Shown piece by piece: positions 17,651-64,000 of a DNA stretch of 64,000 nucleotides. The translations under genes and the position numbers were made by a program. Numbering within the stretch: the first letter of the stretch is position 1; each line of letters opens with the position of its first letter. Under the pieces are notes generated by a model. That model did no database searches and was not told the DNA's origin. It saw only the letters and a program-made list of their open reading frames with translations. Origin of the DNA: Azoarcus sp. (GTDB taxonomy: Bacteria > Pseudomonadota > Gammaproteobacteria > Burkholderiales > Rhodocyclaceae); contig DYFV01000016.1 in NCBI GenBank assembly GCA_020725025.1, positions 1-64,000 of the forward strand. Reading direction: 5' to 3'.

Positions 17651-17671
17651 GATCCGGCGTCTCGCAGGCAC

Positions 17672-18273: not shown

Positions 18274-18296
18274 TTTCTAACTCCTTGAATGTTCGA

Positions 18297-50135: not shown

Positions 50136-50417
50136 ATGAACCTGCCCGACGAAGCCGAAATGCCCACAACGCCGCTGCACTACCACGTACGCGACGCGAG
50201 CGGTCTCTTCCAGCCGATCGCGTTCGGCTTCGTGACCGAACGCATGCGCGACGAAATCCTCGTCGAGCGCGAGCTCATCCTGAGGCTCACACCCGCGTCG
50301 CGTCGTGCCGGCCAGGAAGCCCTCTTCGCCCGGTACGACCCGCGTCGCAGCGCCGACGTCTTTCGTTCGCTGCTGAGCCTTTTCCTCTGCGAGCGCCGCG
50401 ATCCGCGCGCCGCCTGA
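50136..50417 (+). CDS. small hypothetical protein, 93 aa
   Basis: Starts MNLPDEAEMPTTPLHYHV and has a charged helical middle (FGFVTERMRDEILVERELILRL) and an Arg-rich end. No signal peptide, metal motif or recognised family. Codon use is normal, but the ribosome site before 50136 is weak and no neighbour explains it. It lies between the lectin-like gene's terminator and the convergent pstS stop. It may be a real small gene; I assign no function. Confidence 0.5.
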   Translation: MNLPDEAEMPTTPLHYHVRDASGLFQPIAFGFVTERMRDEILVERELILRLTPASRRAGQEALFARYDPRRSADVFRSLLSLFLCERRDPRAA

Positions 50418-50429
50418 GCGTTCCGGCGC

Positions 50430-51491
50430 TCAGCGCGCCAGTCCGGCGAAACCGACGGAGTTGCCCGCCGTATCGGTCACGGACGCCAGCGCACGGAATG
50501 CCTTGGCCTGCACCGCGTCCGGCAGGCGGACGAAGTAGCTCGTCTTCACCAGCTCGTCGCCGTGCAGGAAGGCCCAGCTGAAGAACTCCACCGCCCGCCG
50601 CACGCCAGGGGCATCGCCGCCGCGGCGTGGCACCAGCACGAAGGTGCCCATGGTGATGGGCCAGCTGCGGCTGCCCGGCTGATCGGTGAGGGTGGCGGAG
50701 AAGTCCCCGCTGCGCGGCCAGGGGCTCGCCGCCAGGGCCGCGGCGAAGCTCTCCAGCCCGGCCGCCACATAGACGCCCTCCCGGTTGCGCAAGCTCACCG
50801 GATTGAGGTCGTAGCGCACGACGTAGTTGTAATCGACGTAGCCGATGGACCCGGACGACCGGGCCACTGTCGTCGCCACGCCGTCGTTGCCCTTGGCGGT
50901 CGCGACCCCCTCGCCCCACTTGAAGGCGGTGGCGACGCCGAACCGTGCCCGCCACTCGGGGCTCACCTTGGCCAGGTAATCCGCGAAGTTCCAGGTGGTG
51001 CCGGAGCTGTCGCTGCGCGCCACCACCCGGATCGGAGCGTCGGGCAGCGGCAGGCCACGGTTGAGTCCACGGATGGCCGGATCGTTCCAGCGAAGGATCC
51101 GGCCGCCGAAGATGTCGGCGAGCGTCCTGCCGTCCAGGCGCAGGGCACCCGCCGGGACGCCGGGCAGGTTGACCACCGGCACGGCGCCGCTGACCGCGGT
51201 GGGAATCACCACGACGTCCTGCCCCTGGAGGGCCTCGGCGGTTGGCACGAGATCCGTCGCGCCGAAATCGACCTCGCGGGCGAGCAGCTTCCTGGTGCCG
51301 GCGCCGGAACCGGCGGGATCGTAATCGAGCCGTATGCCGCGATCGGCGGCGAACGCGGTCGCCCACGCCGCATAGACCGGCTTGGCGGCCGACGAGCCGG
51401 CTCCGGTAAACGACGATGACGGCGCCTCGGCTGCCGTGCCCGGGACGGTGAAGGCGAGAGTCAGGACGAAGAACAGGGAATGAAGTCGCAT
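50430..51491 (-). CDS. pstS: phosphate-binding periplasmic protein PstS
   Basis: A 353-residue substrate-binding protein for high-affinity phosphate uptake. It has an N-terminal signal peptide (LHSLFFVLTLAFTVPGTAA), the phosphate-binding start SSSFTGAGSSAAKPVYAAW, the second-lobe motif VARSDSSGTTWNFADYLAK, and DYDPAGSGAGTRKLL. No pstC, pstA, pstB or phoU lies next to it, so it is an orphan here and would need a permease encoded elsewhere. A candidate Pho box with a fitting -10 box lies 63-96 bases upstream, suggesting induction in phosphate starvation. Confidence 0.88.
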   Translation of the reverse strand: MRLHSLFFVLTLAFTVPGTAAEAPSSSFTGAGSSAAKPVYAAWATAFAADRGIRLDYDPAGSGAGTRKLLAREVDFGATDLVPTAEALQGQDVVVIPTAVSGAVPVVNLPGVPAGALRLDGRTLADIFGGRILRWNDPAIRGLNRGLPLPDAPIRVVARSDSSGTTWNFADYLAKVSPEWRARFGVATAFKWGEGVATAKGNDGVATTVARSSGSIGYVDYNYVVRYDLNPVSLRNREGVYVAAGLESFAAALAASPWPRSGDFSATLTDQPGSRSWPITMGTFVLVPRRGGDAPGVRRAVEFFSWAFLHGDELVKTSYFVRLPDAVQAKAFRALASVTDTAGNSVGFAGLAR

Positions 51492-51553
51492 GGGGTCGAG
51501 AGACGGCAGGCGGTAACGACGATGGAATCGTCGCGAAGGGGTGAAGGCCGGGG

Positions 51554-51587
51554 ATTGTTGGATGAGATTGTTTCAGTAAGATGACGA
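51554..51587 (-). promoter_or_regulatory. candidate PhoB-controlled promoter of pstS
   Basis: On the minus strand TCGTCAT (51587-51581), CTTA, CTGAAAC (51576-51570) resembles the Pho-box pair CTGTCAT-N4-CTGTCAY (five of seven in each half). Ten bases downstream AACAAT (51559-51554) could be the -10. Geometry is right; each element is imperfect. Confidence 0.45.
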
Positions 51588-51713
51588 ACCGATTGCGACC
51601 CGAAGAGCGGTCGCGAGCAGGCGACGAGAAGAATCCTGTTCGCTTCTGACCTGGAACACCTATACGGCTCTGCTGCCGAGCCGCTAGCCGAGACCTGCCA
51701 CTGGAGAAAAACG

Positions 51714-52067
51714 ATGATCAAGGTGAGCGTCATGTATCCCGATGCGGACGGCTGCCGCTTCGACTTCGACTACTACTGCAAGTCGCACATGCCGATGGTC
51801 GCGGACAAGCTGGGCAGCGCCTGCCAGGGCGTCGCGGTGGACAAGTACATCCCGACGTCCTCCGGCGAGCGCCCGCCCTTCGTGGCCGCCGCGCACCTGT
51901 TCTTCGAATCCGTCGAAGCCTTCCGGAACGCCTTCGCCCCCCATGCCGAGGCGATCCTGGCCGACGTTCCGAACTACACCGACCTTCAGCCGACGCTGAT
52001 GTTCAGCGAGGTCCTCGTCAACGCCAAGCGGGGCCGGACCGGCGAGTTGCACCTGCACTTGCTATAG
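51714..52067 (+). CDS. EthD-domain / dimeric alpha-beta-barrel protein
   Basis: A 117-residue protein of the EthD type: MIKVSVMYPDADGCRFDFDYY then CKSHMPMVADKLG, with the family's HMP motif. Related proteins assist in ether degradation or act as small alpha-beta-barrel enzymes, but the family is broad and the reaction is unknown here. A GGAG site is at an acceptable distance before the ATG. It is a single gene between divergent pstS and the convergent MCP, 8 bases from the MCP stop. Confidence 0.8.
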   Translation: MIKVSVMYPDADGCRFDFDYYCKSHMPMVADKLGSACQGVAVDKYIPTSSGERPPFVAAAHLFFESVEAFRNAFAPHAEAILADVPNYTDLQPTLMFSEVLVNAKRGRTGELHLHLL

Positions 52068-52075
52068 GGCACCGC

Positions 52076-53734
52076 TCACACCCTGAAGCGCCCGACGAGC
52101 TCGCGCAGGGTCCGGGAAAGCCGATCCAGCTCGCCGGCGACCGCGGCGGTGTCGGCGGCGATCGCCGCGCCCTCCTCGGTCATGCCCGCCACCTGCTCGA
52201 CCCGGCGGGCGACGTCGCGCGCGGCCGCACCCTGGGCGACGAGGGCCTCGCTCATCGCGCCTGCCGCCGCGGCGGCCGAGGCGGCCTGCTCCGCGACGCC
52301 GTCCATGCCCTGCGCGGCGTTGGCGGCGAGCTCCCGGCCGGCCGAGACCCGACCGACCACCTCGGCCATGCCCTCGGCGGCGCTGCGGGCGCTCTCCTGC
52401 ATGGTGGTGACCGTCTCGTGGATCTCGGCGGTGGAGCGGCCGGTGCGCTCGGCGAGCTTGCGCACCTCGTCGGCCACCACCGCGAAGCCCCGCCCGGACT
52501 CGCCTGCGCGGGCGGCCTCGATGGCGGCATTGAGCGCGAGCAGGTTGGTCTGCGCGGCCACCTCCTGGATGACGTCCATCACCGCGGCGACGCGGTCGGA
52601 GTGCCGGCTCAGGGCCTCGATCGCGCCGCGGGCGCGCGACACGCTGTCGGCGATCGTCGCCATCCCCTCGGCGCCGGCGGTCATCTGCCGCGCCCCCTCC
52701 CCTGCCCCGGCGCCCGCGCGCCGGGCCTGGTCGTAGGCCTCGCGCGAGTTGTCGGCGAGCTGGTCGACGCCGACCGACATCTCCTCGACTGCTGCCGCCA
52801 TGCCGGCAGCGGCATCGCTATGCCCCCGGCTGGCCTCCGCAGCCCGGGCCGCCGCGGCGGAAACCGCGTCGGCGGCACGGCCGACCTCGCCGGCGCGCTC
52901 GAGCACTTCGCCCATGGCGCGCTGCATGGCATCGACCAGCTCGTTCACCGCGGCGAGCGCCTCGCCGATCTCGTCCTTCGAGACCACCTCGGCGCGCCGG
53001 GTGAAGTCGCGCTCGCGCACGATGCCGTCTATCAGCGCGTGCATGCCGCGCAGGGGCAGCAGGATCGAGCGCCCGATGCGCGCGGCGAGCAGCGCGAGGA
53101 CGAGCCCCAGTCCGACGAGCACCGCGACCAACCCGGACTGCGCCGCGGTCACCGTGGCGCGCTCCCGCGCCTGGGCGGCGGCGCCCTGCGCCTCGCTCGC
53201 CGCGATGGCGGCGTCGAGGGCGGCCATGAGCGCCTCCTGGGGCTCCGCCTGGGCGGCGACCGGCGCCTTGAACTCGAGCATCAGCATGGCCCGCTCGCCG
53301 TCGTCGGCCGCGGCGGCACGCTCCACCAGCGCCAGGATCGCCTCCTCCCCCTGCCGCCAGCGCCCCCACCTGGCGTCGAGATCCCGTCCCGACGCGGTGC
53401 CGTCCGCCGCTCCGGCGAGCCGGCCGTACACGGCGCGGGCCTCCTCGGCACGGGCGAGCCACGCCCTCTTGTCGGCACCGAGCCGGGCGAAGCGCGCCTG
53501 GGCGTCGTTGGCGAAAGCCCAGCCTTCGATCTCCAGGGTCGAGGCGCGCAGGCGAAGGCTGGCGTGGCGTATCGCCTCCAGCGCCTGGATCGCCGGCACG
53601 TGCCGCTCGACCAGCTCGGCGACCACGGCACGGATCTGTCCGATGCCGACGAGCCCGACCGCGCTGGAGGCGATCAGCCCGCCGACGCCGAGCAGGGCCA
53701 GGAGCATGAGTTTGGTGCGGATGTCGAGGCGCAA
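52076..53734 (-). CDS. methyl-accepting chemotaxis protein (TTG start)
   Basis: A 552-residue chemoreceptor: TM1 about 9-30 ([20 protein letters not shown]), a mostly helical periplasmic domain about 31-180, TM2 about 182-205, HAMP about 206-260 and a signalling domain with the tip [18 protein letters not shown]. The open frame runs upstream to an ATG at 53953, but those residues are Arg/Pro-rich and out of character. The TTG at 53734 follows AGAGGGGAG and directly begins the TM1-preceding basic segment LRLDIRTK, so I take it as the start. No chemosensory genes adjoin it. Confidence 0.87.
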
Positions 53735-53970
53735 GCTGTCTCCCCTCTGTTCTTGTGTTAGATCCGACCGACCGTCGAAACGGCCGGGTGGGAGGGATTT
53801 ACGCGCATCGACTTTCGTTTCGCTTTCGAGCGACCGGCCACGACGCGGCCGCCTGCAGGAGGGCGCGCCACCTCGGTGCCGTATGGAAGCGATCTGCGTT
53901 ACCCGGTGCTTGCAGGCAGGCGGACTGTTCCCGATACTCGGGCTCGTCTTCATGCCGCAGCCGAACCCTC

Positions 53971-54726
53971 ATGATCAAGGCCTTACTCACCGGACACAGC
54001 CGGGGCCTGGGTGCCTCCGTCGCCGAAACCCTGCTCGCCCGCGACATCCCCGTCCTCGCCCTCGCCCGCTCGCCGAATGCCGAGCTCGCCGCGCGCTTTC
54101 CCCGGCTTCTCCGGGAAGTGTCGCTCGACCTTTCGGACACCGCCGCCCTCGCCGCCTGGCTCGCGGCGGGCACCCTGGCCCGCTTCGTCGCGGACGCGGA
54201 CCACTCCCTGCTGATCAACAACGCCGGCCTGCTCCAGCCGGTCGGCCCGGTCGGCACCCAGGACGCCTTGGCCATCGCCCGCGCAGTGGGCGTAAACGTG
54301 GCGGCGCCGCTCATGCTCACCAACGCCTTCGTCGCCGCCACCGCCGGCTGCGCGGACCGGCGCGTGCTGCACGTGTCCAGCGGTGCCGCGCGCAAGGCCT
54401 ACGCCGGCTGGAACGTCTACTGCGCCACCAAGGCCGCGCTCGACCACCACGCCCGCGCCGCCGCCCTCGAAGAGGTGGCCGGCCTGCGCATCGCCAGCGT
54501 CGCGCCGGGCGTGGTGGATACCGACATGCAGGCCGAGGTGCGCGCGAGCCCTCTCGACGCCTTTCCCTCGCGCCGGCGCTTCGAGGCGCTGAAATCGGAA
54601 GGCGCGCTGGCGTCGCCTGCCGACACCGGCCGCCGCCTCGTGGATTACCTGTTGAGCGATAGCTACGGGGACGTGGCGGAGGCCGACCTGCGCGACCTGC
54701 CGGCACCCGGCCGCGCCGCGCACTGA
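53971..54726 (+). CDS. short-chain dehydrogenase/reductase
   Basis: A 251-residue SDR. Rossmann start LLTGHSRGLGASVAETLL, NNAG (INNAGLLQPVG), catalytic Ser in VLHVSSGAARKAYAG, and YCATKAAL with Tyr and Lys. The first glycine motif TGHSRGLG departs from the usual TGxxxGIG but keeps the required glycines. The substrate is unknown; sepiapterin-reductase-like or sugar/lipid reductases are possibilities. It converges on the AhpD-like gene with a 7-base gap and is divergent from the MCP. Confidence 0.87.
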   Translation: MIKALLTGHSRGLGASVAETLLARDIPVLALARSPNAELAARFPRLLREVSLDLSDTAALAAWLAAGTLARFVADADHSLLINNAGLLQPVGPVGTQDALAIARAVGVNVAAPLMLTNAFVAATAGCADRRVLHVSSGAARKAYAGWNVYCATKAALDHHARAAALEEVAGLRIASVAPGVVDTDMQAEVRASPLDAFPSRRRFEALKSEGALASPADTGRRLVDYLLSDSYGDVAEADLRDLPAPGRAAH

Positions 54727-54733
54727 AGCGGGG

Positions 54734-55366
54734 TCACGCGCCGGCCTCCGTTTCGGGGTCTGGCGCCAGGCACTCCGTCGCACTGCGGTCGATCGGCCGA
54801 CCGACCGTCAACGCCCGCCTCAGGCCTTCCTCCATGGTCAGCATCGCGGCGTCGGCCTGCACGCCGAGCCCGTCCAGGATCTTGGTGAAGAAGGCGCGGC
54901 CCGCCGCGGTGGCGACGATGTCGAAGATCTCCGCTTCGTCGAGGCCGTGCCGGCGCAAGCCGTCGACGTCCTCCCTTTCGACGCCCGCCGCGTCGCAGGC
55001 GACCTTGCGCGCGAAGGCCGCCATCGCGCGTTCGGCTGCGGTAAGGCGCTCGCTGTCGCCGCGCTCGGCCAGGTCCCGGACCGCGTCGGCGCCGACGAAT
55101 TCCGCGAGCGCCTTGCCGTGGGCCAGCGCGCAGGCCGAATTGCGCAACGCATGCGCGGCGACGAAGGTGACGAGCTCGAAACGGCGCGCGTCCACCGGCC
55201 GTCGGATCTCGGCGAGCAGCCTGCCCCAGCGCGCCAGCACTTCCGGCCGGACGCTGAAGACTTTGGCGTAGTTGGGCACGTAGCCCCAGTGCGCCTGCTG
55301 GCGCTGGTACATGGCGTACACCTCGCCCGTCGCATCGCGGGGCGCAACGGTTTCGATGAAGGACAT
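54734..55366 (-). CDS. AhpD / carboxymuconolactone-decarboxylase-like protein
   Basis: A 210-residue helical protein with the CMD/AhpD-like core, FVAAHALRNSACALAHGKAL. A single Cys and a His at C-x3-H spacing are present, while the second Cys of the AhpD pair (E-x4-C-x2-C-x3-H) is absent. Full peroxidase chemistry would need another thiol source, so it may be a redox-related or isomerase-like member. AGGAGG precedes the ATG. Third gene of the operon cysK-grx, oxygenase, AhpD-like, 13 bases behind the oxygenase. Role unknown. Confidence 0.8.
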   Translation of the reverse strand: MSFIETVAPRDATGEVYAMYQRQQAHWGYVPNYAKVFSVRPEVLARWGRLLAEIRRPVDARRFELVTFVAAHALRNSACALAHGKALAEFVGADAVRDLAERGDSERLTAAERAMAAFARKVACDAAGVEREDVDGLRRHGLDEAEIFDIVATAAGRAFFTKILDGLGVQADAAMLTMEEGLRRALTVGRPIDRSATECLAPDPETEAGA

Positions 55367-55379
55367 GGCGGTCGCCTCC

Positions 55380-56327
55380 TCACAGGACGTAGTGATCGAT
55401 CTGCACTTCCTCGCCGAGATCGGCGTAGTCGCCGGCGGCCCGCAGCGCACGGAATTCGCCCCACTCGATGGGCCGGTAGCGGGGCGGGTGGCGGGCGTCC
55501 ACCGTCGAGGGCAGCGGCGCGTAGCGCGTGGCGTAGGACGGGTTGTAGAAGAACGGCGCGCTGAACCGCGCCCGCTCGCCATTGGCGAGCACCCGGTGCA
55601 ACGCGGCCCGGTAGCGGTCGTTCGACCACACCTGCACGATGTCGCCGAGGTTGACCACCAGCGCATCGGCCCGCGGCTCCACCAGATGCCAGCGCCCTTC
55701 GCGGAAGACCTGCAGCCCGGGCACCTCGTCCTGCAGCAGCAGGGTCAGCGCACCGGCGTCGGTGTGGTGATTGACGCCGAGGAAACCCTCCCTCGGCGTG
55801 GCTACCCCATCGGGCGCCGCCGGTGCGGGACAGGCCGGATAGTGGTTCAGGCGCACGAAGCTCGACTGCGCGGCGCCGAAGAAGCGCGGCAGGTAGCCGG
55901 CGGGCATGCCGAGGTTGATGCCCACCGCTCCGATGAGCCGCTCCGCCAGCCGCTCGCAGGCGGCGTAGTAAGCGCGCACCGCCGGCTCGAAGTCCGGCAG
56001 CCCGGCCGGCCATTGGGGCTGCAGCGCCCCGCCGTCGGCGGGGCCGTAGTCGAACACCTGCTTCCAGTCCCGCGTGTTCTTGGTCAGCTCCTGGTCGTAG
56101 TAGCCCCAGGGATTCTCGTCGCTGCGCAGGATGGAGCGCTTGACCGCGTCCGGCTGGGCGAAAAAGCTGTGCGCCGCCGCCATCACGCGACGCAGAATCC
56201 CGGCGTCGATGCCGTGATGGGTGACCTGGAAGAAGCCCCATTCCCGGCAGGCCGCATCGAGGGCGGAGAGCGTTGCGGGCTGCCCCAGCCGGGCGATGTC
56301 GATGACCGGCACATGCATTGGATTCAT
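55380..56327 (-). CDS. Fe(II)-dependent oxygenase, isopenicillin-N-synthase-like
   Basis: A 315-residue enzyme of the 2-oxoglutarate/Fe(II) oxygenase superfamily. Beginning IPNS-like (VPVIDIARLG, CREWGFFQVTHHGID), it contains the facial triad H188-x-D190 (NHHTDAGAL) and H244 (LHRVLANGERARFS), with the following RxS pattern that binds the 2-oxoglutarate carboxylate in most members. The substrate is unknown; no peptide synthetase is nearby. AGGAG precedes the ATG, 16 bases after the cysteine synthase-glutaredoxin fusion, so a sulfur-containing or amino-acid-derived substrate is an attractive inference. Confidence 0.88.
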   Translation of the reverse strand: MNPMHVPVIDIARLGQPATLSALDAACREWGFFQVTHHGIDAGILRRVMAAAHSFFAQPDAVKRSILRSDENPWGYYDQELTKNTRDWKQVFDYGPADGGALQPQWPAGLPDFEPAVRAYYAACERLAERLIGAVGINLGMPAGYLPRFFGAAQSSFVRLNHYPACPAPAAPDGVATPREGFLGVNHHTDAGALTLLLQDEVPGLQVFREGRWHLVEPRADALVVNLGDIVQVWSNDRYRAALHRVLANGERARFSAPFFYNPSYATRYAPLPSTVDARHPPRYRPIEWGEFRALRAAGDYADLGEEVQIDHYVL

Positions 56328-56343
56328 GACGATTCTCCTGTCC

Positions 56344-57837
56344 TCAGACCGTCGCCCGCGGTTGCAGCCATTTGGGAAACAGGGTGTAGGGGTCGAGCTC
56401 GACACCCGTGTCGTAGTCGATGCCGCAGGCCTGGAGGCGCCGCTCCAGCGCCCCCTCGCGCATGGCGTCGAAGAGCTCGGTGCAGCCGCCCACGTGGGCG
56501 CCGCCGATGTAGATCTGCGGGATGGTCGGGCTGCCGGTATCCCGTGCGAGGACGGCGCGGATCTTGCCGCCGCGCCCGCCGGCCTGGTACTCGACCGAGT
56601 CGAGGTCGATGCTGCGATAGCGGATACCCAGCCGCTGGAAGAGCTTGCGCACCGACCAGCAGAACTCGCACCACTCCAGCGCGAAGAGCAGCACCGGCTC
56701 GTCGCGCACCAGAGCGGCGACGAAGCGCTCGGCCTCGGCGTCGATCGGGGCAGCCGCAGGAGCACGCGCGGCGGGGACGCCGCAGGCGGCCGGCCGGTCG
56801 AAGCGGTAGCCCGGCGTCGAGCGCGACAGGGCCAGCTCCTCCGCATCCATCTCCTCGCCGATGCCCTCGAAGAGCGGCGTCGACAGATAGCGCTCACCGG
56901 TGTCGGGCAGCATGACCACGATGTTCGCGCCCGGCTGCGCGCGCTTCGCGACGTCGAGGGCGGCGGCCAGGGTGGCGCCCGCCGAGGTGCCGACGAAGAT
57001 CCCCTCGCGGCGCGCCAGCTCCCGCGCGAGCCGCATCGCCTCGGCGCCGCCCACCGGCACGATCTCGTCGACGAGGCCCTCGCCCACCGCCGTCTCGGTC
57101 AGGCGCGACACGAAGTCCGGGCTCCAGCCCTGCATCAGGTGCGGGCGAAAGCTCGGATGGCTCGCCGAAGGCCGACCGTCGGCCTCCCGCGGCTGGGCGA
57201 TGCCGCTGCCGAGCACCTGGGCGTTGTCCGGCTCGGCGGCGACGATGCGGGTGCCCTTGCCCGCCCGCTTGAGGCCCCTCGCCACCCCCAGCAGCGTGCC
57301 GCCGGTGCCGAAGCCGGAGACGAAGCAGTCCAGCGGCTCGTCGCGAAAATCGTCCAGGATCTCCTGGGCCGTGGTGCGCGTGTGCACCTCGGCGTTGGCC
57401 TCGTTCTCGAACTGGCGGCACAGGTACCAGCCGTGGGCCTCGGCCAGCTCGATCGCCTTGGCGAGCATGCCGGTGCCCTTTTCCGAGGCGGGCGTCAGCA
57501 CCACCTTCGCCCCCAGGAAGCGCAGCAATTTGCGCCGCTCCAGGCTGAAGTTCTCCGCCATGACGATGACCAGGGGATAGCCGCGCTCGGCGCACACCAT
57601 GGCGAGCCCGATGCCGGTGTTGCCGCTGGTGGCCTCGATCACCGTCTGGCCCGGCCGGAGCTCGCCGCGGCGCTCGGCGGCCTCGATCACGGCGAGCGCC
57701 ATGCGGTCCTTGACCGAGCCCATGGGGTTGAAGGATTCCAGCTTCACGTAAACGTTCACGCCCGCCGGCGCCAGCTTGCGAAGCTTCACCAGCGGCGTAC
57801 CGCCTATCGTCCCGAGTATGTTGTCGTACCTCGCCAT
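56344..57837 (-). CDS. cysteine synthase-glutaredoxin fusion
   Basis: A 497-residue two-domain protein. Residues 1 to about 340 are a PLP-dependent O-acetylserine sulfhydrylase/cysteine synthase: K43 (MGSVKDR) would bind PLP, with TSGNTGIGLA and GTGGTLLGVARGL. After a linker of about 30 residues, a glutaredoxin-like domain (about 375-470) has CxxC at C390-C393 (EWCEFCWSV), cis-Pro in TIPQIYIGG and GGCTEL. Fusing a thiol-redox domain to the sulfhydrylase suggests that the Grx supplies or releases a bound sulfur or thiol; this is inference. GAGGAG precedes the ATG. First gene of the minus-strand operon, divergent from the SARP gene. Confidence 0.92.
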   Translation of the reverse strand: MARYDNILGTIGGTPLVKLRKLAPAGVNVYVKLESFNPMGSVKDRMALAVIEAAERRGELRPGQTVIEATSGNTGIGLAMVCAERGYPLVIVMAENFSLERRKLLRFLGAKVVLTPASEKGTGMLAKAIELAEAHGWYLCRQFENEANAEVHTRTTAQEILDDFRDEPLDCFVSGFGTGGTLLGVARGLKRAGKGTRIVAAEPDNAQVLGSGIAQPREADGRPSASHPSFRPHLMQGWSPDFVSRLTETAVGEGLVDEIVPVGGAEAMRLARELARREGIFVGTSAGATLAAALDVAKRAQPGANIVVMLPDTGERYLSTPLFEGIGEEMDAEELALSRSTPGYRFDRPAACGVPAARAPAAAPIDAEAERFVAALVRDEPVLLFALEWCEFCWSVRKLFQRLGIRYRSIDLDSVEYQAGGRGGKIRAVLARDTGSPTIPQIYIGGAHVGGCTELFDAMREGALERRLQACGIDYDTGVELDPYTLFPKWLQPRATV

Positions 57838-57958
57838 CGTCGTCTCCTCTCTGTCGGCTGCTGATACGGTTGCCATCATTCGCGCCGTTCGAGGAAGCGA
57901 GCGTTGGAGAGAGCGTGGTTTTTGCGTTCCGGGCGGGAAAATCAGGAGCAATCGAAGC

Positions 57959-57988
57959 TTGTGAATGGCGATGCGCGGCACCTATATT
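57959..57988 (+). promoter_or_regulatory. candidate sigma-70 promoter of the SARP operon
   Basis: TTGTGA at 57959-57964 and TATATT at 57983-57988, spaced by 18 bases, match sigma-70 -35 and -10 boxes (four and five of six). Transcription would start about 20 bases before the ATG at 58017. That ATG has no clear ribosome site, so the regulator may be translated weakly. Confidence 0.5.
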
Positions 57989-58016
57989 TGAGTGTTGACC
58001 GTGCGAACGCCGCCCC

Positions 58017-61001
58017 ATGGCCACACTGGAGCTCAAATTCCTGGGCGAGTTCGGCGTCTTCCGCGACGGCCGTGCCTTGCCGCTGCCGCCGTCGAAGAAG
58101 ACCCGCGCGCTGCTCGCCTACCTGTGCCTGAACGCCAGGAAGTTGCGGCGGGAGCATCTGTGCGAGCTGCTCTGGGAGGTGCCGGACGATCCCCGCGGCT
58201 CGCTGCGCTGGAGCCTGTCCAAGCTGCGCCGCCTGCTCGAGGACGACGGCCGGGAGCGCATCGTCGCCGACCGCACCCACGTGGCCCTCGACGCCGACGG
58301 CCTCGCCATCGACTGCACGGCGCTGCAGGCGCTGGCGGCGGGCGATCTCCGGCAGGCCTCGACCGAGGCGCTGGAGCACGCCGCGGCGAGCTACGCGGGC
58401 AGCTTCCTCGAAGGCCTGGAATTCACCGACTTCCACGATTTCCATGCCTGGTGCGTCGCCGAGCGCGATCGCGCGGCCCGCGCGCAGGCGGCCGTACTCC
58501 AGGAGCTGGTGAGCCGGCTGGCGGACGATCCCGAGCGGGCCCTGCCCCACGCCCGTGCACTGGCCGGCATCGCCCCCTACGACGAGACGGCCCGCGCCAC
58601 GCTGATCCGCCTGCTGGTGGCGGCCCGCCACGTGGAGGAAGCGGAGCAGCAGCTGCAGCTGGGCATGCGCGTGCTCAGAGAGGCGGGGATCGCATCCACC
58701 GGGGCCTTGCTGCAGGCGCGCCGCGGCCCGATTCCGGCGGCCGTACCGAGGGCTGCGTCCCCCGCACCGGCTCCGGCGCCGCCCGCCCGGGTGCCGGTGG
58801 ACGACGGGACGCTGGTCGGGCGCGAGGAAGAGCGGCGCATGCTCGCCGATGCCCTGCCGGGGAGCACCGCCAATCGGGCCGAGGCCATCCTGCTGCGCGG
58901 CGAACCGGGCATGGGCAAATCGCGCCTGCTCGACTGGCTGGCCGAGCGCGCCCGCGCCGCCGGCCTCCCCGTGCTGCGCGCCAGCGCGTTCGAGACCGAA
59001 GCCATCCGGCCCTTCGCCCTCTGGATAGATGCCCTGCGCGCCCGCGGGGCCGAGACCGCGCAGCGCGTCTTCGGAGACATGCGGGCGGACAACCGCGACC
59101 GCCTCTTCGCCGGGCTGAGCGATCTGGTCGCGGCCGACACGCAGCGACATGGCGCGGTGTTGATGTTCGACGACGTGCACTGGTGCGACGAGTCCAGCGC
59201 GGCCGCCCTGCACTACGTCATGCGCATCAATGGCGAGCGGCCGGTGCTGGCCGTGCTGGCCACCCGCGAATCCGAGCTGCGCGACAACCTGCCGCTCCAG
59301 CAGGCCCTGCGCGGCCTGCGCCGCGACGGGCTGCTGCGGGAGCTGAAGCTGGAACCCCTGACCGAATCGGCCATCGCCGAGCTGATCCGCATCCGGGCAC
59401 CCGGCGCCGATACCCCGCGCCTCGCCCGCGAGTGCGGCGGCAACCCCCTGCTGGCGCTGGAGCTCGCCCGTGCCGAGCGCGAGGGCGGCACCGACACCGG
59501 CGGCTCCCTCGAGGAGCTGGTGCGCGAACGGCTGGCCCGCTTCGACCCGGAGGGTGCCGAGGTACTGCGCTGGGCGGCGGTGCTCAGCCCGCGCCTGGAG
59601 CTGTCCGCCCTCGCGCACCTCGCCGGCCTGGACCCGGCAAGCGTCGGGCGCGCGCTGGAGAAGGCCGAGCACCAGGCCATCCTCCGCAGCACGGACGGGG
59701 GCGGCCTACGCTTCGCCCACGATCTCATCGCGCGCGCCGTCTACATGGAGATTTCGCCGGTGCGCCGCCAGCTCATGCATCGCCGCGTCGCCGAATGGAT
59801 GGAGCAGGATCTCGCCTTCGAGCTGTCCCGCGCCGCCGACCTGGCCCATCACGCCACCCACAGCGGCGACCCCGGTCTCGCCGCCCGCGCGCTGGTGTCC
59901 GCCGGCCGGCTGTGCCTGCGCTTCTTCGCCAACGAGGATGCCCTGTCCCTTGCGAAGAAGGGCCTGCAGCTGGCCGAGCAGCTGCCGGCGGCCGAGCGGG
60001 TGCGAGTGGCCATCGACCTGCACGACGTCATGCTCTCGGCCGCGCCCCCGGAAGACTGGCAGGACGCCGCCCAGCGCTTCACGGCGCTCGCGGAACAGGC
60101 GCTGGACCACGGCGCGCCGGCCCACGCGCGCCAGGCCTACCAGATGGCCTCCTGGCTGCGCTGGGCCCACGGGCATTGGGCCGGGGCGCGGGAGCAGTCG
60201 CTGCAGTCCGAGCGCGCGGTGCGCGGCGGCAGCGACCTCGACCAGATCGTCGGCATGGCCGAGACGGCCAAATGCCTGGCCATGCTGGAGCGGGACCTGG
60301 CCCAGGCCGACGCCATGCTCATGGAAGCCCAGTCGCTCGCGAGCCGCCGGCGCTTCGCCCACCGGGCGATTCCCGCCGGACTGGGCATGCTGCGCTTCTA
60401 TGAAAATCGCCTGGAGGAAGCCGAGGAGCTCTTCCTGCAGGCCCGCACCCTGTGCAAGTCGGCGGGCGACCGGATCAACGAATACCAGGCAGGCGAGTAT
60501 CTTGTGATGGTCGACGTCCAGCGCGGCCGCTGGCAGGCCGCGCGCGAGCGCTGCAACGAGCTGGTGCTGCTGGGCGAGAAGCTGCGCGTGGGCAGCGAGG
60601 CGCCCTTCGCGCACGCCCTGCTCGGCCTGTGCGCCTATGCCCTCGACGACGAGCCGGCGGCGCTGGATGCCGCCCTGGAGGACCTGCGCCTGGCCGACGC
60701 GAAGCACCGCCTGGCCTACGTGCAGACCCGCGCGGCCCTGCTCGACTGCGAGCGCGGCCGCCATGATGCCGCCCAGGCACGCGCGGACGAGGCCTTGTCC
60801 TGCGCCCGCGCCCTGGAGCGCGCGACCGAGATGGTGGTGGCCCATGCGGTGCTCTCCCAGTGCGCGCTCGCGGGCGGCGACCAGGCCGGCGGGCAGGCCC
60901 ACCTCGACGCGCTGGCGCAGCTCGAGCGGGAGGGCGCGGCCGCCTGGGCGCTGGAGATCGCCCGTCGGGCCAAGGAATGCGGGAGGACGCAGCATGCCTG
61001 A
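58017..61001 (+). CDS. SARP-type transcriptional regulator with AAA ATPase and helical repeats
   Basis: A 994-residue regulator like the large AfsR/SARP proteins: an OmpR-like DNA-binding domain (about 1-95, LGEFGVFRDGRALPLPPSKK), a BTAD domain (about 95-245), an AAA-type ATPase with Walker A GEPGMGKS from residue 295 and Walker B VLMFDDVHW near 381-388, then a long all-helical TPR-like region to the end. SARPs generally activate specialised-metabolism genes in actinomycetes and are rare in Proteobacteria. Its stop overlaps the DUF4242 start, so it heads its own operon, and it is divergent from the cysteine synthase-glutaredoxin operon; both are natural targets. The signal sensed by the helical region is unknown. 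Confidence 0.9.
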   Translation: MATLELKFLGEFGVFRDGRALPLPPSKKTRALLAYLCLNARKLRREHLCELLWEVPDDPRGSLRWSLSKLRRLLEDDGRERIVADRTHVALDADGLAIDCTALQALAAGDLRQASTEALEHAAASYAGSFLEGLEFTDFHDFHAWCVAERDRAARAQAAVLQELVSRLADDPERALPHARALAGIAPYDETARATLIRLLVAARHVEEAEQQLQLGMRVLREAGIASTGALLQARRGPIPAAVPRAASPAPAPAPPARVPVDDGTLVGREEERRMLADALPGSTANRAEAILLRGEPGMGKSRLLDWLAERARAAGLPVLRASAFETEAIRPFALWIDALRARGAETAQRVFGDMRADNRDRLFAGLSDLVAADTQRHGAVLMFDDVHWCDESSAAALHYVMRINGERPVLAVLATRESELRDNLPLQQALRGLRRDGLLRELKLEPLTESAIAELIRIRAPGADTPRLARECGGNPLLALELARAEREGGTDTGGSLEELVRERLARFDPEGAEVLRWAAVLSPRLELSALAHLAGLDPASVGRALEKAEHQAILRSTDGGGLRFAHDLIARAVYMEISPVRRQLMHRRVAEWMEQDLAFELSRAADLAHHATHSGDPGLAARALVSAGRLCLRFFANEDALSLAKKGLQLAEQLPAAERVRVAIDLHDVMLSAAPPEDWQDAAQRFTALAEQALDHGAPAHARQAYQMASWLRWAHGHWAGAREQSLQSERAVRGGSDLDQIVGMAETAKCLAMLERDLAQADAMLMEAQSLASRRRFAHRAIPAGLGMLRFYENRLEEAEELFLQARTLCKSAGDRINEYQAGEYLVMVDVQRGRWQAARERCNELVLLGEKLRVGSEAPFAHALLGLCAYALDDEPAALDAALEDLRLADAKHRLAYVQTRAALLDCERGRHDAAQARADEALSCARALERATEMVVAHAVLSQCALAGGDQAGGQAHLDALAQLEREGAAAWALEIARRAKECGRTQHA

Positions 61002-61530
61002 GCTCTTCCTGGAACGGGATTTCGATCCGCCCCTGCTCGCCGCCGCCGTGCGCGCAGTCAGCCGGAGCCTGCAGGAACAGGGATGCCTCGATCTCCACCG
61101 GGTCGAGTGGGCGGGCAGCCTGCTGTCGGCCGACGGCCGCAAGATGGTGTGCCGCTTTCGTGCCGCCGATGCGGAATCGGTGCGCATCGTGCTGCGCACC
61201 GTGGGTGTGGCGGACATGAGCCGCCTGTGGCCCGGCACCCGGCACGACCGGCCGGGCCTCACCGAGGCGGAGAGCGCAGCGGCCAATGTGCTGGTGCGGC
61301 GGCGCTTCGAACAACCGGTCACGCTCGAAGAGATCCAGGCCCGCGAGGACGCCGGCGCCTGGTGCCTCGAGGCGCGGAGGGTGAAGTTCATCCGGACCTT
61401 CTTCTCGACCGACTGCCGCCGCATGATCTGCCTCTACCAGGCGCCGGACGCCGAGTCGGTGCGCCAGGCCCAGCGCCAGGCCGGCATGCCGGTCGAAGAC
61501 GTGTGGGCCTTCAACGCCGTCCTGCCCTGA
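60994..61530 (+). CDS. two-repeat DUF4242 (SCO4226-like) protein
   Basis: A 178-residue protein with two DUF4242-type domains: repeat 1 about 1-88 (ELFLERDFDPPL ... DGRKMVCRFRAADAESVR) and repeat 2 about 98-178 (LVRRRFEQPVTLEE ... CRRMICLYQAPDAESVR). The known relative SCO4226 is a small nickel-binding ferredoxin-like protein. The aligned block RRMVCxFxAPDAESVR is kept in both repeats. GGAGGA precedes the ATG at 60994, which overlaps the end of the SARP gene by 8 bases. A second, related gene at 63570 ends the visible operon. A metal- or small-molecule-binding role is inference. Confidence 0.82.
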   Translation: MPELFLERDFDPPLLAAAVRAVSRSLQEQGCLDLHRVEWAGSLLSADGRKMVCRFRAADAESVRIVLRTVGVADMSRLWPGTRHDRPGLTEAESAAANVLVRRRFEQPVTLEEIQAREDAGAWCLEARRVKFIRTFFSTDCRRMICLYQAPDAESVRQAQRQAGMPVEDVWAFNAVLP

Positions 61531-61681
61531 ACCGGCAGCGCCGGCCCTTCGCTCCGCAGATTCCACGCCGAACCCGAAAAAACCACGGGCGCTTTCACGC
61601 TGGCTCCAACGCACGAGGCCGAAAGTGGCACCGTCCGACGCGCAATCGGGCGTTTCCCACCCAACCTCAAGGAGACAGCAC

Positions 61682-62242
61682 ATGGATACCAGGACCGTCA
61701 TGGCCGACAACGGCGTCAACGTCGAAGCCCTCCTCGGCGCCCGCGAAGCGCTTTCCCAGGCCCCTGCGGCCGCCCGCTTCAACTGGCGCGCGAGCTGCGA
61801 GTGGGTCAAGGGCACCCACGCCCGCACCACCATCGACGGCTTCTTCGGACTGGGCGAGGAGCAGCGGCACAAGCAGATGCATCGGGTTGAGACCGACCAC
61901 CCGGAGCTCTTCGCCTCCGAGGACCACGGCGCCACGCCGGTGGAGATCGTGCTCGCCGGCCTCGCCGGTTGCCTCACCGCGGGCATCGCGGCGGTGGCGC
62001 AGAACCGCAACATCCAGCTGCGCTCGGTCAAGGCCACCCTGGAGGCGGGCATGGACCTGCAGGGGATCCTGGGCATCGACAGCGACGTGCGCAACGGCTT
62101 CGACGGCGTGAAGGTGACCTACACGATCGACGCCGACGCCAGCCGCGAGGAGATCGAGGCCCTGGTGGCGCAGTCGCAGAAGCGCTCGGCGGTTTTCGAT
62201 ATCATCACCAACCCGACCGACGTGTCGGTGATGGTGGCATGA
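61682..62242 (+). CDS. OsmC-family protein
   Basis: A 186-residue OsmC/Ohr-type fold protein: RFNWRASCEWVKGTHART, the first reactive Cys in LAGLAGCLTAGIAAVAQNR, and QKRSAVFDIITNPTDVSVM, where a second catalytic Cys of Ohr/OsmC would lie but Ser is present. With one Cys it may bind or transfer thiols rather than reduce peroxides by the classical disulfide route. GGAG precedes the ATG at 61682, 150 bases after the DUF4242 gene. Its stop overlaps the flavin monooxygenase start (ATGA), so the two are translated together. Confidence 0.88.
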   Translation: MDTRTVMADNGVNVEALLGAREALSQAPAAARFNWRASCEWVKGTHARTTIDGFFGLGEEQRHKQMHRVETDHPELFASEDHGATPVEIVLAGLAGCLTAGIAAVAQNRNIQLRSVKATLEAGMDLQGILGIDSDVRNGFDGVKVTYTIDADASREEIEALVAQSQKRSAVFDIITNPTDVSVMVA

Positions 62243-63573
62243 ACGCCGCGCTCACCCGGCTCGCAGCGGGCGCCGGTGGGCGCCCGCTGGCGCGCAGCAA
62301 AGACGTGGTGGTGATCGGCGCCGGCCACAGCGGCCTCGCCATGAGCCACTGCCTCGCCGCGCGCGGCATCGACCACGTCGTGCTGGAACGCGGCGAGGTG
62401 GCCAACGCCTGGCGCCACGAGCGCTGGGATTCGCTGCGCCTGCTCACCCCGAACTGGCTCAGCCGGCTGCCGGGATACCGCTACACCGGCGACGACCCGG
62501 ACGGCTACATGAGCTGCGAGGAGGTCGTCGCCTTCATCGCCGGCTACGCCCGCGTGAGCGCGGCACCCGTGCGCACGGGCACGACCGTGACCGGGGTGCG
62601 GGCCGACGGCGCCGGCTACCGGGTGAGCACCGACCGCGGCGACTGGCGCTGCCGCGCGGTGGTCGTCGCCAGCGGCGCCTTCGGCCGGCCGGTGGTGCCG
62701 CGGCTCGCGGCCGACCTGCCCCCGGACGTCGCCCAGCTCACGCCCTTCGGCTACCGCAATCCCGGGCAGCTCGAGGACGGCGGCGTGCTGGTGGTGGGCG
62801 CCTCGGCCACCGGCCTGCAACTCGCGGACGAGATCCGGCGCGCCGGCCACCCGGTCACGATCGCCGTGGGCGAGCACGTGCGCATGCCCCGGGTCTATCG
62901 CGGCCGCGACATCCAGTGGTGGCTCCATGCCGCGGGCTTCCTCGACGAGCGCTACGACGCCCTGCGCAATGGCCGCGACGACCTCGCCCGCGCCCGCGCC
63001 GTGGCCTCGCCGCAACTGGTGGGCTCGCGCGAGCGGCCCATCATGGACCTCAACGCGCTCGCCGCGGAAGGCGCGCGCATCGTCGGGCGCCTGGCCGGCG
63101 TGCGCGACGGCAAGGCGCTCTTCTCCGGGTCGCTGCGCAACGTCTGCGCGCTGGCCGACCTGAAGATGAACCGGCTGCTCGCCGCGCTGGACGACTGGGC
63201 GGCGGCATCCGGACAGATCGACGCCACGATGCCCGGCGAGCGCTTCGACGCCACGCGCATCGCCGCCTCGCCCCCCACCTGCCTGGACCTGAAACGCGAA
63301 GGCATCCGCACGGTGATCTGGGCGACGGGTTTCAAGCCCGACCACTCCTGGCTCGAGGTGCCGGTGCTCGACCGCAAGGGCGGCATCCGCCACGACGGCG
63401 GCGTCGCCGACGCGCCGGGCCTGTACGTCATGGGCCTGCCCTTCCTGCGCCGGCGCAAGTCGAGCTTCATCCACGGCGCCGAGGACGACGCCCGCGAGCT
63501 CGCCGCCCATCTCGCCGGCCATCTCGACGCCCAGGCCCGCGGCTGCCGCGAGCGGGTCGCCCTCCAGCCATGA
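62239..63573 (+). CDS. flavin-dependent monooxygenase (CzcO/FMO type)
   Basis: A 444-residue flavoprotein with the FAD-binding motif VVVIGAGHSGLAMS (about 23-36), NADPH-binding motif VLVVGASATGLQLAD (about 184-198), and IWATGFKPDHSW near the C-terminus. This is typical of FMO/Baeyer-Villiger-like monooxygenases of the CzcO group. The segment after FAD, VLERGEVANAWRHERWDSL, is also typical. The substrate is unknown; S- or N-oxygenation or ketone oxidation are possible. It overlaps OsmC at its start and the next DUF4242 gene at its end (ATGA), in the SARP operon. Confidence 0.9.
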   Translation: MNAALTRLAAGAGGRPLARSKDVVVIGAGHSGLAMSHCLAARGIDHVVLERGEVANAWRHERWDSLRLLTPNWLSRLPGYRYTGDDPDGYMSCEEVVAFIAGYARVSAAPVRTGTTVTGVRADGAGYRVSTDRGDWRCRAVVVASGAFGRPVVPRLAADLPPDVAQLTPFGYRNPGQLEDGGVLVVGASATGLQLADEIRRAGHPVTIAVGEHVRMPRVYRGRDIQWWLHAAGFLDERYDALRNGRDDLARARAVASPQLVGSRERPIMDLNALAAEGARIVGRLAGVRDGKALFSGSLRNVCALADLKMNRLLAALDDWAAASGQIDATMPGERFDATRIAASPPTCLDLKREGIRTVIWATGFKPDHSWLEVPVLDRKGGIRHDGGVADAPGLYVMGLPFLRRRKSSFIHGAEDDARELAAHLAGHLDAQARGCRERVALQP

Positions 63574-64000
63574 CCGCGGGGCCCGACATTGCCATGACCG
63601 ACGTGGTCTGGGTGTGCGACGGCGAGACCTCGGACTGCGCCGGCCTCGCGCAGGCGATGGTCGACGGCGCCTGCCTGGGCCTGCACCGGGTCCGCTGGCG
63701 CGAGGCCTACCTGGCCGAGGGCGCGCATCGGATGGTGTGCCGTTTTCGGGCACCCGACGCGGAGTCCGTGCGCCTGGCCTTGCACTTGGCCGGGGCCGGC
63801 GAGGGCGTCTGGACCGCCACCCTCGTCGGATCCGGAGGCGCCGAGGCCAACCTGGTACTGGAACGCGAGTTCCCCCAGCCCCTGCGCGGCGACCCGCGCC
63901 GCGCGCTCGCCCTCGCCCGCGCCGAATGCCTGGAGGCCTGCGGCGTCGAGCCCCTGCATGTCATGATCTCCCTCGACCGGCGCCACGCGATATGCCTCTG
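63570..64000 (+). CDS. second two-repeat DUF4242 protein (3' partial)
   Basis: The frame continues past the right edge; 143 codons are visible. Repeat 1 (about 10-85) has RMVCRFRAPDAESVRLALHLAG, cut here to the recognisable core; repeat 2 begins about residue 92 (LVLEREFPQPLRGD) and runs into SLDRRHAICL at the edge. Relative to the paralogue at 60994 the first repeat has lost the conserved SxDxR turn and its N-terminal strand is rewritten (VWVCDGETSDCAG), so the two proteins have diverged. The ATG at 63570 overlaps the monooxygenase stop. Confidence 0.8.
   Translation, partial: MTAGPDIAMTDVVWVCDGETSDCAGLAQAMVDGACLGLHRVRWREAYLAEGAHRMVCRFRAPDAESVRLALHLAGAGEGVWTATLVGSGGAEANLVLEREFPQPLRGDPRRALALARAECLEACGVEPLHVMISLDRRHAICL

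What the first reader, a model, noticed from the sequence alone, without database searches (positions are those of the whole stretch)
54734..64000. SARP-controlled two-operon island with thiol/redox enzymes: candidate undescribed system
A SARP regulator (class rare in Proteobacteria) lies between two divergent operons. One encodes a cysteine synthase-glutaredoxin fusion, an isopenicillin-N-synthase-like Fe(II) oxygenase and an AhpD-like protein with gaps of 13-16 bases. The other encodes the SARP itself, a DUF4242 protein, OsmC, a flavin monooxygenase and a second DUF4242 protein, with stop/start overlaps at three of the four joints. The enzyme set (sulfur incorporation, two kinds of oxygenase, two single-Cys redox proteins, possible metal-binding small proteins) suggests synthesis or detoxification of a thiol- or amino-acid-derived molecule. 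I know of no pathway with this composition.
Basis: partly seen in the sequence, partly recalled or inferred. Interest (0 to 1): 0.78.

Follow-up and report, generated by a model that had tools for sequence, protein, structure and literature searches.

The report
SARP-controlled thiol and sulfur redox regulon
Seven or eight neighbouring bacterial genes for making cysteine and handling reactive thiols appear to be switched on together by one regulator through two matching DNA sites; the same set with the same sites recurs in distantly related bacteria, but what it protects against or processes is not yet known.

Summary
Observation confirmed: all eight genes, gaps and overlaps are as described; the last gene runs 142 bases past the window. 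The claim of a joint system is now well supported. The block CMD-oxygenase-CysK/Grx | SARP-DUF4242-OsmC-FMO recurs, with some gene losses, in other Beta- and Gammaproteobacteria. In the genus, the four components searched (SARP, CysK-Grx, FMO, DUF4242) are together in 3 of 17 genomes, and their orthologues are absent from the other 14. Competibacter has DUF4242-OsmC-FMO-CysK/Grx-oxygenase-CMD on one strand, without a SARP.

New here: a triple direct repeat of 12-bp period lies in the cysK-grx/SARP divergent promoter and again before osmC, each followed at fixed spacing by a degenerate -10. It precedes osmC in 19 of 20 loci with the SARP-linked DUF4242 and in 1 of 59 without. Three whole genomes each have two perfect sites, both here. 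This is how SARP activators are laid out, so one SARP very probably controls both operons. OsmC-FMO is a broader core pair (77 of 80 loci).

The chemistry is inferred: my best reading is an inducible thiol/reactive-sulfur response ending in cysteine synthesis.

The parts
54734..55366 (-). CMD/AhpD-like protein, single catalytic-type Cys79 with His83
   Evidence: PF02627 25.7 bits, TIGR01926 74.7 bits against a cut-off of 81.8; C79 and H83 in 19 of 19 aligned rows, AhpD's first Cys position (motif recalled) is N in 17 and H in 2
55380..56327 (-). Fe(II)/2-oxoglutarate-type oxygenase (DIOX_N + 2OG-FeII_Oxy)
   Evidence: H188xD190, H244 and R254xS256 in 10 of 10 rows; best solved relatives plant-type dioxygenases and EFE, not IPNS
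56344..57837 (-). Cysteine synthase A fused to a glutaredoxin with a C-E-F-C site
   Evidence: TIGR01139 353.4 bits over a cut-off of 350.95, PF00462 51.4 bits; K43, C390 and C393 in 19 of 19 rows
57875..57880 (-). Degenerate -10 (AATGAT) of the cysK-grx operon, at fixed spacing from operator 1
   Evidence: A at +9 and T at +13 after the 37-base site in 14 of 14 loci
57890..57922 (+). Operator 1: triple direct repeat of 12-bp period in the divergent cysK-grx/SARP promoter
   Evidence: 0 mismatches, none found in 100 shuffles of the window
58017..61001 (+). Large SARP (SARP-LAL type): BTAD, AAA ATPase, long C-terminal part
   Evidence: BTAD 32.4 bits, AAA_16 70.3 bits
60994..61530 (+). Tandem SCO4226-like (DUF4242) protein with conserved Cys in both halves; proposed sensor or partner of the SARP
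   Evidence: PF14026 80.5 bits, two stretches; C31, C53 and D59 in 19 of 19 rows, C124 and C146 in 18 of 19; AF2 model pLDDT 94.4
61579..61611 (-). Operator 2: the same triple repeat upstream of osmC, in the same orientation towards the activated gene
61621..61626 (+). Degenerate -10 (GAAAGT) of the osmC-FMO operon, at the same spacing from operator 2
   Evidence: A at +9 and T at +13 in 19 of 19 loci
61682..62242 (+). OsmC-family protein, C97 invariant
   Evidence: PF02566 63.5 bits; C97 in 78 of 78 rows, C39 in 58 of 78
62239..63573 (+). Flavin monooxygenase of the MSMEG_0569-like group, no CxxC
   Evidence: directly after OsmC in 77 of 80 loci, in the other 3 the contig begins within 136 bases
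63570..64000 (+). Second SCO4226-like (DUF4242) protein, runs to contig position 64142
   Evidence: PF14026 33.1 bits for the part in the window; related stretches after FMO in L107 (PF14026) and L128 (tblastn); none in that place in G010 and G013

Best explanation
This is a dedicated regulon for thiol/reactive-sulfur redox chemistry. Shown by comparison: (1) the genes travel and diverge together as a module; (2) two promoters, those of cysK-grx/oxygenase/CMD and of osmC-FMO, carry the same triple direct repeat followed at fixed spacing by a poor -10, the layout that SARP activators use. Inferred with high confidence: the SARP binds both sites and recruits RNA polymerase. Inferred with moderate confidence: the DUF4242 protein, whose gene overlaps that of the SARP and which has conserved Cys, helps the SARP's ATPase part sense the signal. 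Inferred with low confidence, the chemistry: on exposure to an oxidised or electrophilic thiol or another reactive organosulfur compound, the FMO oxygenates it on sulfur, the Fe(II) oxygenase attacks the carbon skeleton, OsmC and the single-Cys CMD reduce peroxide or sulfenyl by-products, the Grx domain frees sulfur from mixed disulfides or S-sulfocysteine, and CysK returns sulfur as cysteine.
For: Neighbourhood: block in G010 and G013 at 61-84% identity and in other Beta/Gammaproteobacteria; OsmC beside FMO in 8 of 8 sampled close relatives of the FMO and 77 of 80 loci. All-or-none: full-length SARP, full-length CysK-Grx, FMO orthologue and PF14026 in the same 3 of 17 congeneric genomes. One strand in Competibacter. 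Co-diversification r 0.69-0.92 for 15 gene pairs. Operators: 15 of 15 divergent regions, 14 distinct; osmC site in 19 of 20 against 1 of 59, Fisher p 4.5e-16; with up to 3 mismatches, a site in all 16 DUF4242 loci of the 80 and in 1 of the other 64; two perfect sites in each of 3 whole genomes and none elsewhere with fewer than 3 mismatches; two cluster sites in 14 of 16 further genomes; -10 A and T in 33 of 33. SARP layout from PMC10936776 and PMC5930380 (passages). Chemistry: nearest solved FMOs were tested on sulfides (PMC4220118, listing and abstract); Grx reduces S-sulfocysteine (PMC3528435 abstract); osmC and ahpD occur in allicin-resistance islands (PMC7119367 passages).
Against: No experiment, no known inducer or substrate. 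The repeat period is 12, not the 11 bp reported for SARPs. The block is not rigid: the oxygenase is missing in L110, L135, L136 and L156, CysK-Grx in L108 and L145, the second DUF4242 in most. Most of the 80 OsmC-FMO loci show no CysK-Grx, CMD or SARP, so the core can act without them. Of 6 full-length CysK-Grx copies in 398 genomes, 4 are not beside OsmC: 2 lie by a DsrE protein and a decarboxylase, 1 near a distant FMO relative, 1 with none of these; that fits sulfur transfer or biosynthesis as well as stress. In PfAR-1 no transposon insertion was found in osmC, so that analogy is weak for OsmC. I saw the motif by eye first and scored it on the same regions (leave-one-locus-out). Four loci without DUF4242 (L139, L176, L140, L152) score 8.4-13.3, just above the shuffle maximum of 8.1.
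Confidence: 0.45

Rival explanations
1. Sulfur scavenging: FMO and the Fe(II) oxygenase open an organosulfur nutrient, and CysK-Grx captures the released sulfide or thiosulfate (through S-sulfocysteine) as cysteine; OsmC and CMD only protect from by-products.
For: A CysK-Grx fusion is a logical thiosulfate-to-cysteine enzyme, given that Grx reduces S-sulfocysteine (abstract). In L119 and L147 OsmC-FMO follows a gene that looks like O-acetylhomoserine sulfhydrylase (named by eye) and a CoA-binding protein (PF13380 in L147). Separate CysK/CysM-like genes exist in the genome, so this copy is an extra one.
Against: No transporter belongs to the recurrent set apart from general ABC genes; the sulfhydrylase link rests on two adjacent cases out of 80 loci (L109 and L122 hold a 33-34% identical relative further away).
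Confidence: 0.25
2. Biosynthesis: CysK makes a beta-substituted alanine (or cysteine) that FMO, the Fe(II) oxygenase and CMD turn into a small sulfur or nitrogen metabolite, in keeping with SARPs as biosynthesis activators.
For: Relatives of this CysK sit beside decarboxylases of the PF00282 kind in L190 and L204 (Pfam) and in L233, L238 and L240 (tblastn), in L238 also with a divergent SARP-like gene; oxygenase and FMO are typical tailoring enzymes.
Against: No decarboxylase, ligase, carrier protein or exporter among the eight genes; OsmC, Grx and the single-Cys CMD are redox proteins; the CysK domain passes the cysteine synthase A cut-off.
Confidence: 0.15
3. Cyanide handling: CysK acts as beta-cyanoalanine synthase and the FMO serves as in the nitrilase (Nit1C) clusters, which hold a paralogue.
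For: The FMO is a relative of the MSMEG_0569 enzyme of Nit1C clusters; one such cluster (recognised by eye) lies in the congener G014. Nit1C is linked to cyanide assimilation (search listing and abstract starts).
Against: 37% identity to that paralogue and 342 bits against a cut-off of 498; no nitrilase in the block or among the recurrent neighbours.
Confidence: 0.05
4. Arsenic-related thiol stress: the FMO is ArsO-like and the module helps tolerate arsenicals.
For: FMO matches the ArsO model at 136 bits (below its cut-off of 425); ars operons lie beside OsmC in L105 and in Novosphingobium pLA3.
Against: Among all loci longer than 3 kb held at that time, ACR3 was found only at those two places (L203 and L204 are the same one); ars operons are common accessory genes.
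Confidence: 0.05
5. No joint system: neighbouring genes by chance.
For: Only 3 of 17 congeneric genomes carry it, in three different chromosomal contexts.
Against: All calls listed for the main explanation; in each of those contexts the seven-gene block is intact while the flanks differ.
Confidence: 0.03

Closest known systems
SARP-LAL and large SARP regulators (PimR, AfsR) of Streptomyces
   Same: BTAD plus ATPase architecture; triple direct repeats as in PimR's main operator; proximal repeat about 8-9 bases from a poor -10; regulator gene divergent from a target (PMC5930380 and PMC10936776, passages).
   Different: Repeat period 12 instead of 11; targets are thiol/sulfur enzymes, not an antibiotic cluster; proteobacterial; overlapping DUF4242 gene.
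Allicin-resistance islands of Pseudomonas PfAR-1
   Same: Accessory redox clusters with osmC and an ahpD-type gene (PMC7119367, passages).
   Different: Those hold dsbA, trx, oye, kefF, kefC and tetR, none of them in this block; 'monooxygenase' and 'cysteine synthase' do not occur in that paper's main text.
Nit1C (MSMEG_0569) nitrilase clusters
   Same: Paralogous flavoprotein.
   Different: No nitrilase here; no OsmC relative in the one cluster looked at in full (L192) nor beside the two other distant FMO relatives fetched (L098, L099).
Type II flavin monooxygenases SMFMO, CFMO, PSFMO
   Same: Closest solved sequences to the FMO.
   Different: Similarity covers about residues 20-224 only; their role in the cell was not taken from any call.
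SCO4226 nickel-binding protein
   Same: PF14026 domain; a D-x-x-S pattern kept in both halves.
   Different: Two domains in one chain; conserved Cys are not among the published Ni ligands (PMC4186839, section read); NF033706 20.8 bits against a cut-off of 125.

Membership tests
SARP-LAL / large SARP | BTAD domain and ATPase (NOD/AAA) part in one protein | tested here: met
   BTAD 32.4 bits over 22.1 (not listed at E<=1e-3), AAA_16 70.3 bits
SARP-LAL / large SARP | C-terminal TPR domain | tested here: inconclusive
   only a weak TPR_19 match at residues 169-216; the C-terminal part matches TIGR03903 loosely
SARP-LAL / large SARP | Direct-repeat operator about 8 bp from the -10 | tested here: met
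   triple repeat; -10 hexamer starts 9 bases after the proximal CG in all 33 sites aligned
SARP-LAL / large SARP | 11- or 22-bp repeat spacing | tested here: not met
   identity 0.53 at lag 12, 0.23 at lag 11
SARP-LAL / large SARP | Protein binds and activates these promoters | not testable with these tools
   needs EMSA or transcription assay
Cysteine synthase A | Curated model score and PLP lysine | tested here: met
   353.4 over 350.95; K43 in 19 of 19 rows
AhpD alkylhydroperoxidase | CxxC plus His active site (recalled) | tested here: not met
   first Cys position N or H in 19 of 19 rows; TIGR01926 below its cut-off
Fe(II)/2OG oxygenase superfamily | HxD...H and RxS | tested here: met
   10 of 10 rows
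Isopenicillin N synthase | Closest relatives are IPNS | tested here: not met
   IPNS at most 55 bits against 129-141 for plant dioxygenases and EFE
MSMEG_0569 / Nit1C | TIGR04046 cut-off and neighbouring nitrilase | tested here: not met
   342 against 498; no nitrilase among recurrent neighbours
SCO4226 nickel-binding proteins | Equivalog score and conserved Ni-1 ligands (Asp43, Ser46, His76) | tested here: inconclusive
   NF033706 cut-off not met; D59xxS62 and D152xxS155 largely kept; not aligned to SCO4226 itself, so the His is open
Allicin-resistance island | dsbA, trx, oye and kefFC with osmC and ahpD | tested here: not met
   none of dsbA, trx, oye, kefFC among the eight genes

The most novel reading that the evidence does not exclude
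OsmC and this FMO clade form an undescribed, widespread two-protein thiol/sulfur oxidation system (seen side by side in 77 of the 80 closest loci, out of 553 relatives of the FMO confirmed), and in Beta/Gammaproteobacteria a SARP with a DUF4242 sensor has been given sole command of it together with a CysK-Grx salvage enzyme, through operators of 12-bp period found almost nowhere else in the genome: a SARP used as a private stress switch rather than an antibiotic activator.
Probability: 0.35. Interest if true: 0.82.

Novelty: new variant of a known kind. Interest (0 to 1): 0.62.

Why it matters
It gives a concrete, testable regulon: two operators of known sequence, one regulator and two operons. 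It assigns a likely regulator and partners to a widespread OsmC-FMO pair for which my searches found no description, extends SARP-type control from antibiotic clusters to thiol/sulfur metabolism in Proteobacteria, and suggests a sensor role for DUF4242 proteins.

Tried and rejected
Calling the system a Nit1C relative: rejected, since the paralogue is 37% identical and no nitrilase is present. Nickel system: not supported beyond the Pfam name. AhpD and IPNS as functional labels: rejected. Arsenic: only two places beside ars operons. KatG downstream as a member: near the block in G000 and G010 only, not found in the 80 loci. Extra operators in Halomonas (G719, G724): they fall inside a frame that looks like uvrC (named by eye) and lack the -10 signature (read), so taken as chance. 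Plasmid search with CMD: no match. Fold search of the DUF4242 model gave only general alpha/beta-barrel and ferredoxin-like matches (TM about 0.3-0.5). PDB sequence search with the DUF4242 profile: none. Rfam: nothing in 50000-64000. ARAGORN's tRNA-Met at 61157-61247 lies inside the DUF4242 frame and is taken as false. An earlier thought of mine that L234 shares the DsrE-decarboxylase neighbours of L233 (note) was wrong: one search shows other genes there.

Paper searches for a description of the system, listings only: MSMEG_0569 (2 papers), DUF4242 (3 papers), four of OsmC, cysteine synthase, SARP, glutaredoxin and monooxygenase (0), four of five SARP/BTAD/Proteobacteria terms (0), cysteine synthase with glutaredoxin domain and fusion (1, on oomycetes). 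The OsmC-FMO pair alone was not searched for.


Full report
WHAT IS THERE. The window is positions 1-64000 of a 76,432-base contig of a 5.44 Mb genome (completeness 99.75, contamination 5.03 as given). The last gene ends at contig position 64142.

WHAT THE PROTEINS ARE. Pfam and NCBIfam give CMD, 2OG-FeII_Oxy/DIOX_N, PALP + glutaredoxin (cysteine synthase A just above its cut-off), AAA_16, SCO4226-like, OsmC and an FMO nearest to TIGR04046 but below its cut-off. BTAD scores above its cut-off in the genome search but was not listed by hmmscan. Catalytic-type residues are kept across relatives: CysK K43 and Grx C390 and C393 in 19 of 19 rows, oxygenase HxD...H and RxS in 10 of 10, OsmC C97 in 78 of 78. 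The CMD keeps C79 and H83 in 19 of 19 but lacks AhpD's first Cys (motif recalled). The FMO has no CxxC, so a monooxygenase is likelier than a disulfide reductase. Each of these row counts includes the window protein twice (as query and as window region), so independent sequences are one fewer.

CONSERVATION OF THE BLOCK. In the congeners G010 and G013 the set CMD-oxygenase-CysK/Grx | SARP-DUF4242-OsmC-FMO is present in the same order at 61-84% identity, while flanking genes differ from each other and from the window. Across 17 congeneric genomes the near full-length SARP, the full-length CysK-Grx, the FMO orthologue and PF14026 occur in the same 3 and in none of the other 14. G014 has only the distant Nit1C-type paralogue of FMO; the window's genome has one further CysK-Grx and one further DUF4242 elsewhere. 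Oxygenase, OsmC and CMD were not searched genus-wide. An oxygenase profile over 274 genomes of the class found no second orthologue (own 676 bits, next 242). FMO profile, 299 proteobacterial genomes: 41 match at E<=1e-80; besides the own one, 6 at E<=3e-149 and 2 near 1e-108; OsmC lies beside FMO in all 8, and in neither of the 2 weaker ones fetched (L098, L099).

NAMED GENOMES. tblastn of the window proteins on those 80: OsmC directly upstream on the same strand in 77; in the other 3 (L109, L129, L172) FMO begins within 136 bases of the contig end. DUF4242 in 16 of 80, SARP in 15 of those 16 (L144 in part), CysK-Grx in 12 of those 15 and in 3 loci without SARP, CMD in 15 of 80, oxygenase in 8 of 80. 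L106 is the same contig as G013's. Many loci are cut by contig ends, so counts are lower bounds; the 80 are the loci most similar to the query, so they over-represent the block. Carriers include Halomonas, a Rhodocyclaceae MAG, a Cellvibrionales MAG and other Gammaproteobacteria MAGs. In Candidatus Competibacter (L103) a single-domain DUF4242, OsmC, FMO, CysK-Grx, oxygenase and CMD follow one another on one strand, next to a divergent regulator with an OmpR-type DNA-binding domain instead of a SARP. Pairwise identities of the components correlate (r 0.69-0.92, 15 gene pairs, at most 3 of 2000 permutations as high); this also reflects shared species history, for which I had no control gene.

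THE OPERATORS. Reading the divergent cysK-grx/SARP region and the osmC upstream region side by side showed one shared element of three direct repeats, in IUPAC CGDKGRANNNRS-CGTKRRANNNNS-CGTGGWWTT. A related expression matched 15 of 15 divergent regions examined (14 distinct) and 18 of 23 osmC upstream regions of loci with DUF4242 or CysK-Grx, against 0 of 56 others (L135 matched twice). Scored with a matrix built without the locus in question, the 200 bases before osmC give 35.8-49.2 in 19 of 20 loci with the SARP-linked DUF4242 (18 of 19 without the duplicate L106) and 18.2 in the last, L145. Of 59 loci without it 58 score at most 13.3, and L143, which has another BTAD-type regulator, 38.8. 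The best of 395 shuffled sequences scores 8.1; L139, L176, L140 and L152 lie slightly above that (Fisher p 4.5e-16 with the duplicate kept). With up to 3 mismatches anywhere in the fetched stretch, 17 of 80 loci have a site: all 16 with DUF4242, and L143. In L145 the site lies before the SARP gene, in L108 and L143 before CMD. In L128 the divergent site exceeds 3 mismatches and an extra site precedes two inserted genes, one an alpha/beta hydrolase. The repeat period is 12 (identity 0.53 at lag 12, 0.20-0.30 at the other lags from 8 to 15). In both promoters the site has the same orientation towards the gene, and A at +9 and T at +13 after it are invariant (14 of 14 and 19 of 19), that is, a -10 of the form xAxxxT at fixed spacing.

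REGULON SIZE. With up to 3 mismatches the pattern has two perfect sites in each of G000, G010 and G013, all at this locus, and two 3-mismatch sites elsewhere in G000, where the reversed control pattern has one. In 100 shuffles of the window it never occurs. In 16 further genomes 14 have two sites at the locus (in G722 on two contigs) and 2 have one; 12 more sites lie elsewhere, 11 with 3 mismatches and 1 with 2, against 3 for the control pattern. I fetched four of these 12. L274 precedes a flavoprotein-like gene followed by a MaoC relative of the one found beside OsmC-FMO in other taxa, and L275 an uncharacterised exported-looking protein; both have the A/T signature. Two Halomonas sites (L271, L272) lie in a uvrC-like frame and lack it (read).

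MECHANISM. Large SARPs bind direct repeats whose 3' member lies 8 bp from the -10, with 11- or 22-bp spacing (PMC10936776, passages). [quoted passage not shown] The site found here has that layout except for the 12-bp period. I therefore infer that this SARP activates cysK-grx/oxygenase/CMD and osmC-FMO, its own gene having a separate, better -10 (TATATT, 57983-57988, seen by eye). That DUF4242 helps sensing is inferred from its overlap with the SARP gene, its conserved Cys, the Competibacter arrangement, and a DUF4242 gene divergent from a regulator-like gene elsewhere in this genome (L191; regulator named by eye).

CHEMISTRY. Three arrangements tie the rare CysK-Grx fusion to OsmC-FMO: this block, Competibacter, and Novosphingobium pLA3, where OsmC-FMO (43-44% identical), flavoprotein, globin, cyclase, kinase, regulator, CysK-Grx (62%) and decarboxylase lie in a row. 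Among 398 proteobacterial genomes 5 have the full-length fusion, in 6 copies: 2 in the SARP block (window, G409), 2 beside DsrE and a decarboxylase (L190, L233), 1 with an MSMEG_0569-like FMO 1.6 kb away (L235) and 1 with none of these (L234). Grx reduces S-sulfocysteine to cysteine (PMC3528435, abstract) and the nearest solved FMOs were tested on sulfides (PMC4220118, listing and abstract). Allicin islands combine osmC and ahpD (PMC7119367, passages). A thiol/reactive-sulfur response is thus my best reading, with sulfur scavenging and biosynthesis as live rivals.

LIMITS. Nothing here was measured in a cell. The motif was first seen by eye on the regions later scored. Gene calls in relatives rest on tblastn and a simple ORF chooser, and several neighbours were named by eye. 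Paper searches cover open-licence texts only.

Noticed in passing
L190 (G000:C81:12000-31999), 7966-11452: A second CysK-Grx fusion (65% identical) in the same genome, after a DsrE protein and a PF00282 decarboxylase, beside genes that look like a corrinoid/methyltransferase group.
   Followed up: partly
L204 (Novosphingobium pentaromativorans pLA3), 7328-20272: OsmC-FMO, flavoprotein, truncated globin, cyclase, kinase, regulator, CysK-Grx and decarboxylase in a row, beside an ars operon.
   Followed up: partly
L274 (G717:C28), 1766-3880: A third operator-like site with the -10 signature before a flavoprotein-like gene and a MaoC gene.
   Followed up: partly
L143, L160, L115, L095, L096: BTAD-type regulators fused to alpha/beta hydrolases near OsmC-FMO: another regulator type for the same pair.
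   Followed up: partly
L105, 2529-6621: An ars operon lies between the DUF4242 remnant and OsmC-FMO.
   Followed up: partly
L155, L160, L162, L167, L170, L174, L175, L177, L181: In nine Mesorhizobium loci a CoA-binding-type protein lies close downstream of FMO; in L119 and L147 its relative sits between a MetY-like gene and OsmC.
   Followed up: no
plasmid collection: 534 plasmid records, 357 of them Klebsiella, hold a relative of the FMO; the Klebsiella rows listed are about 40% identical and annotated as MSMEG_0569-family.
   Followed up: no
contig C23 64183-66900 (minus), just past the window: A katG-like gene follows the block; G010 has another katG within a few kb of its block.
   Followed up: partly
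window 61157-61247: ARAGORN calls a tRNA-Met inside the DUF4242 coding frame; probably false.
   Followed up: no
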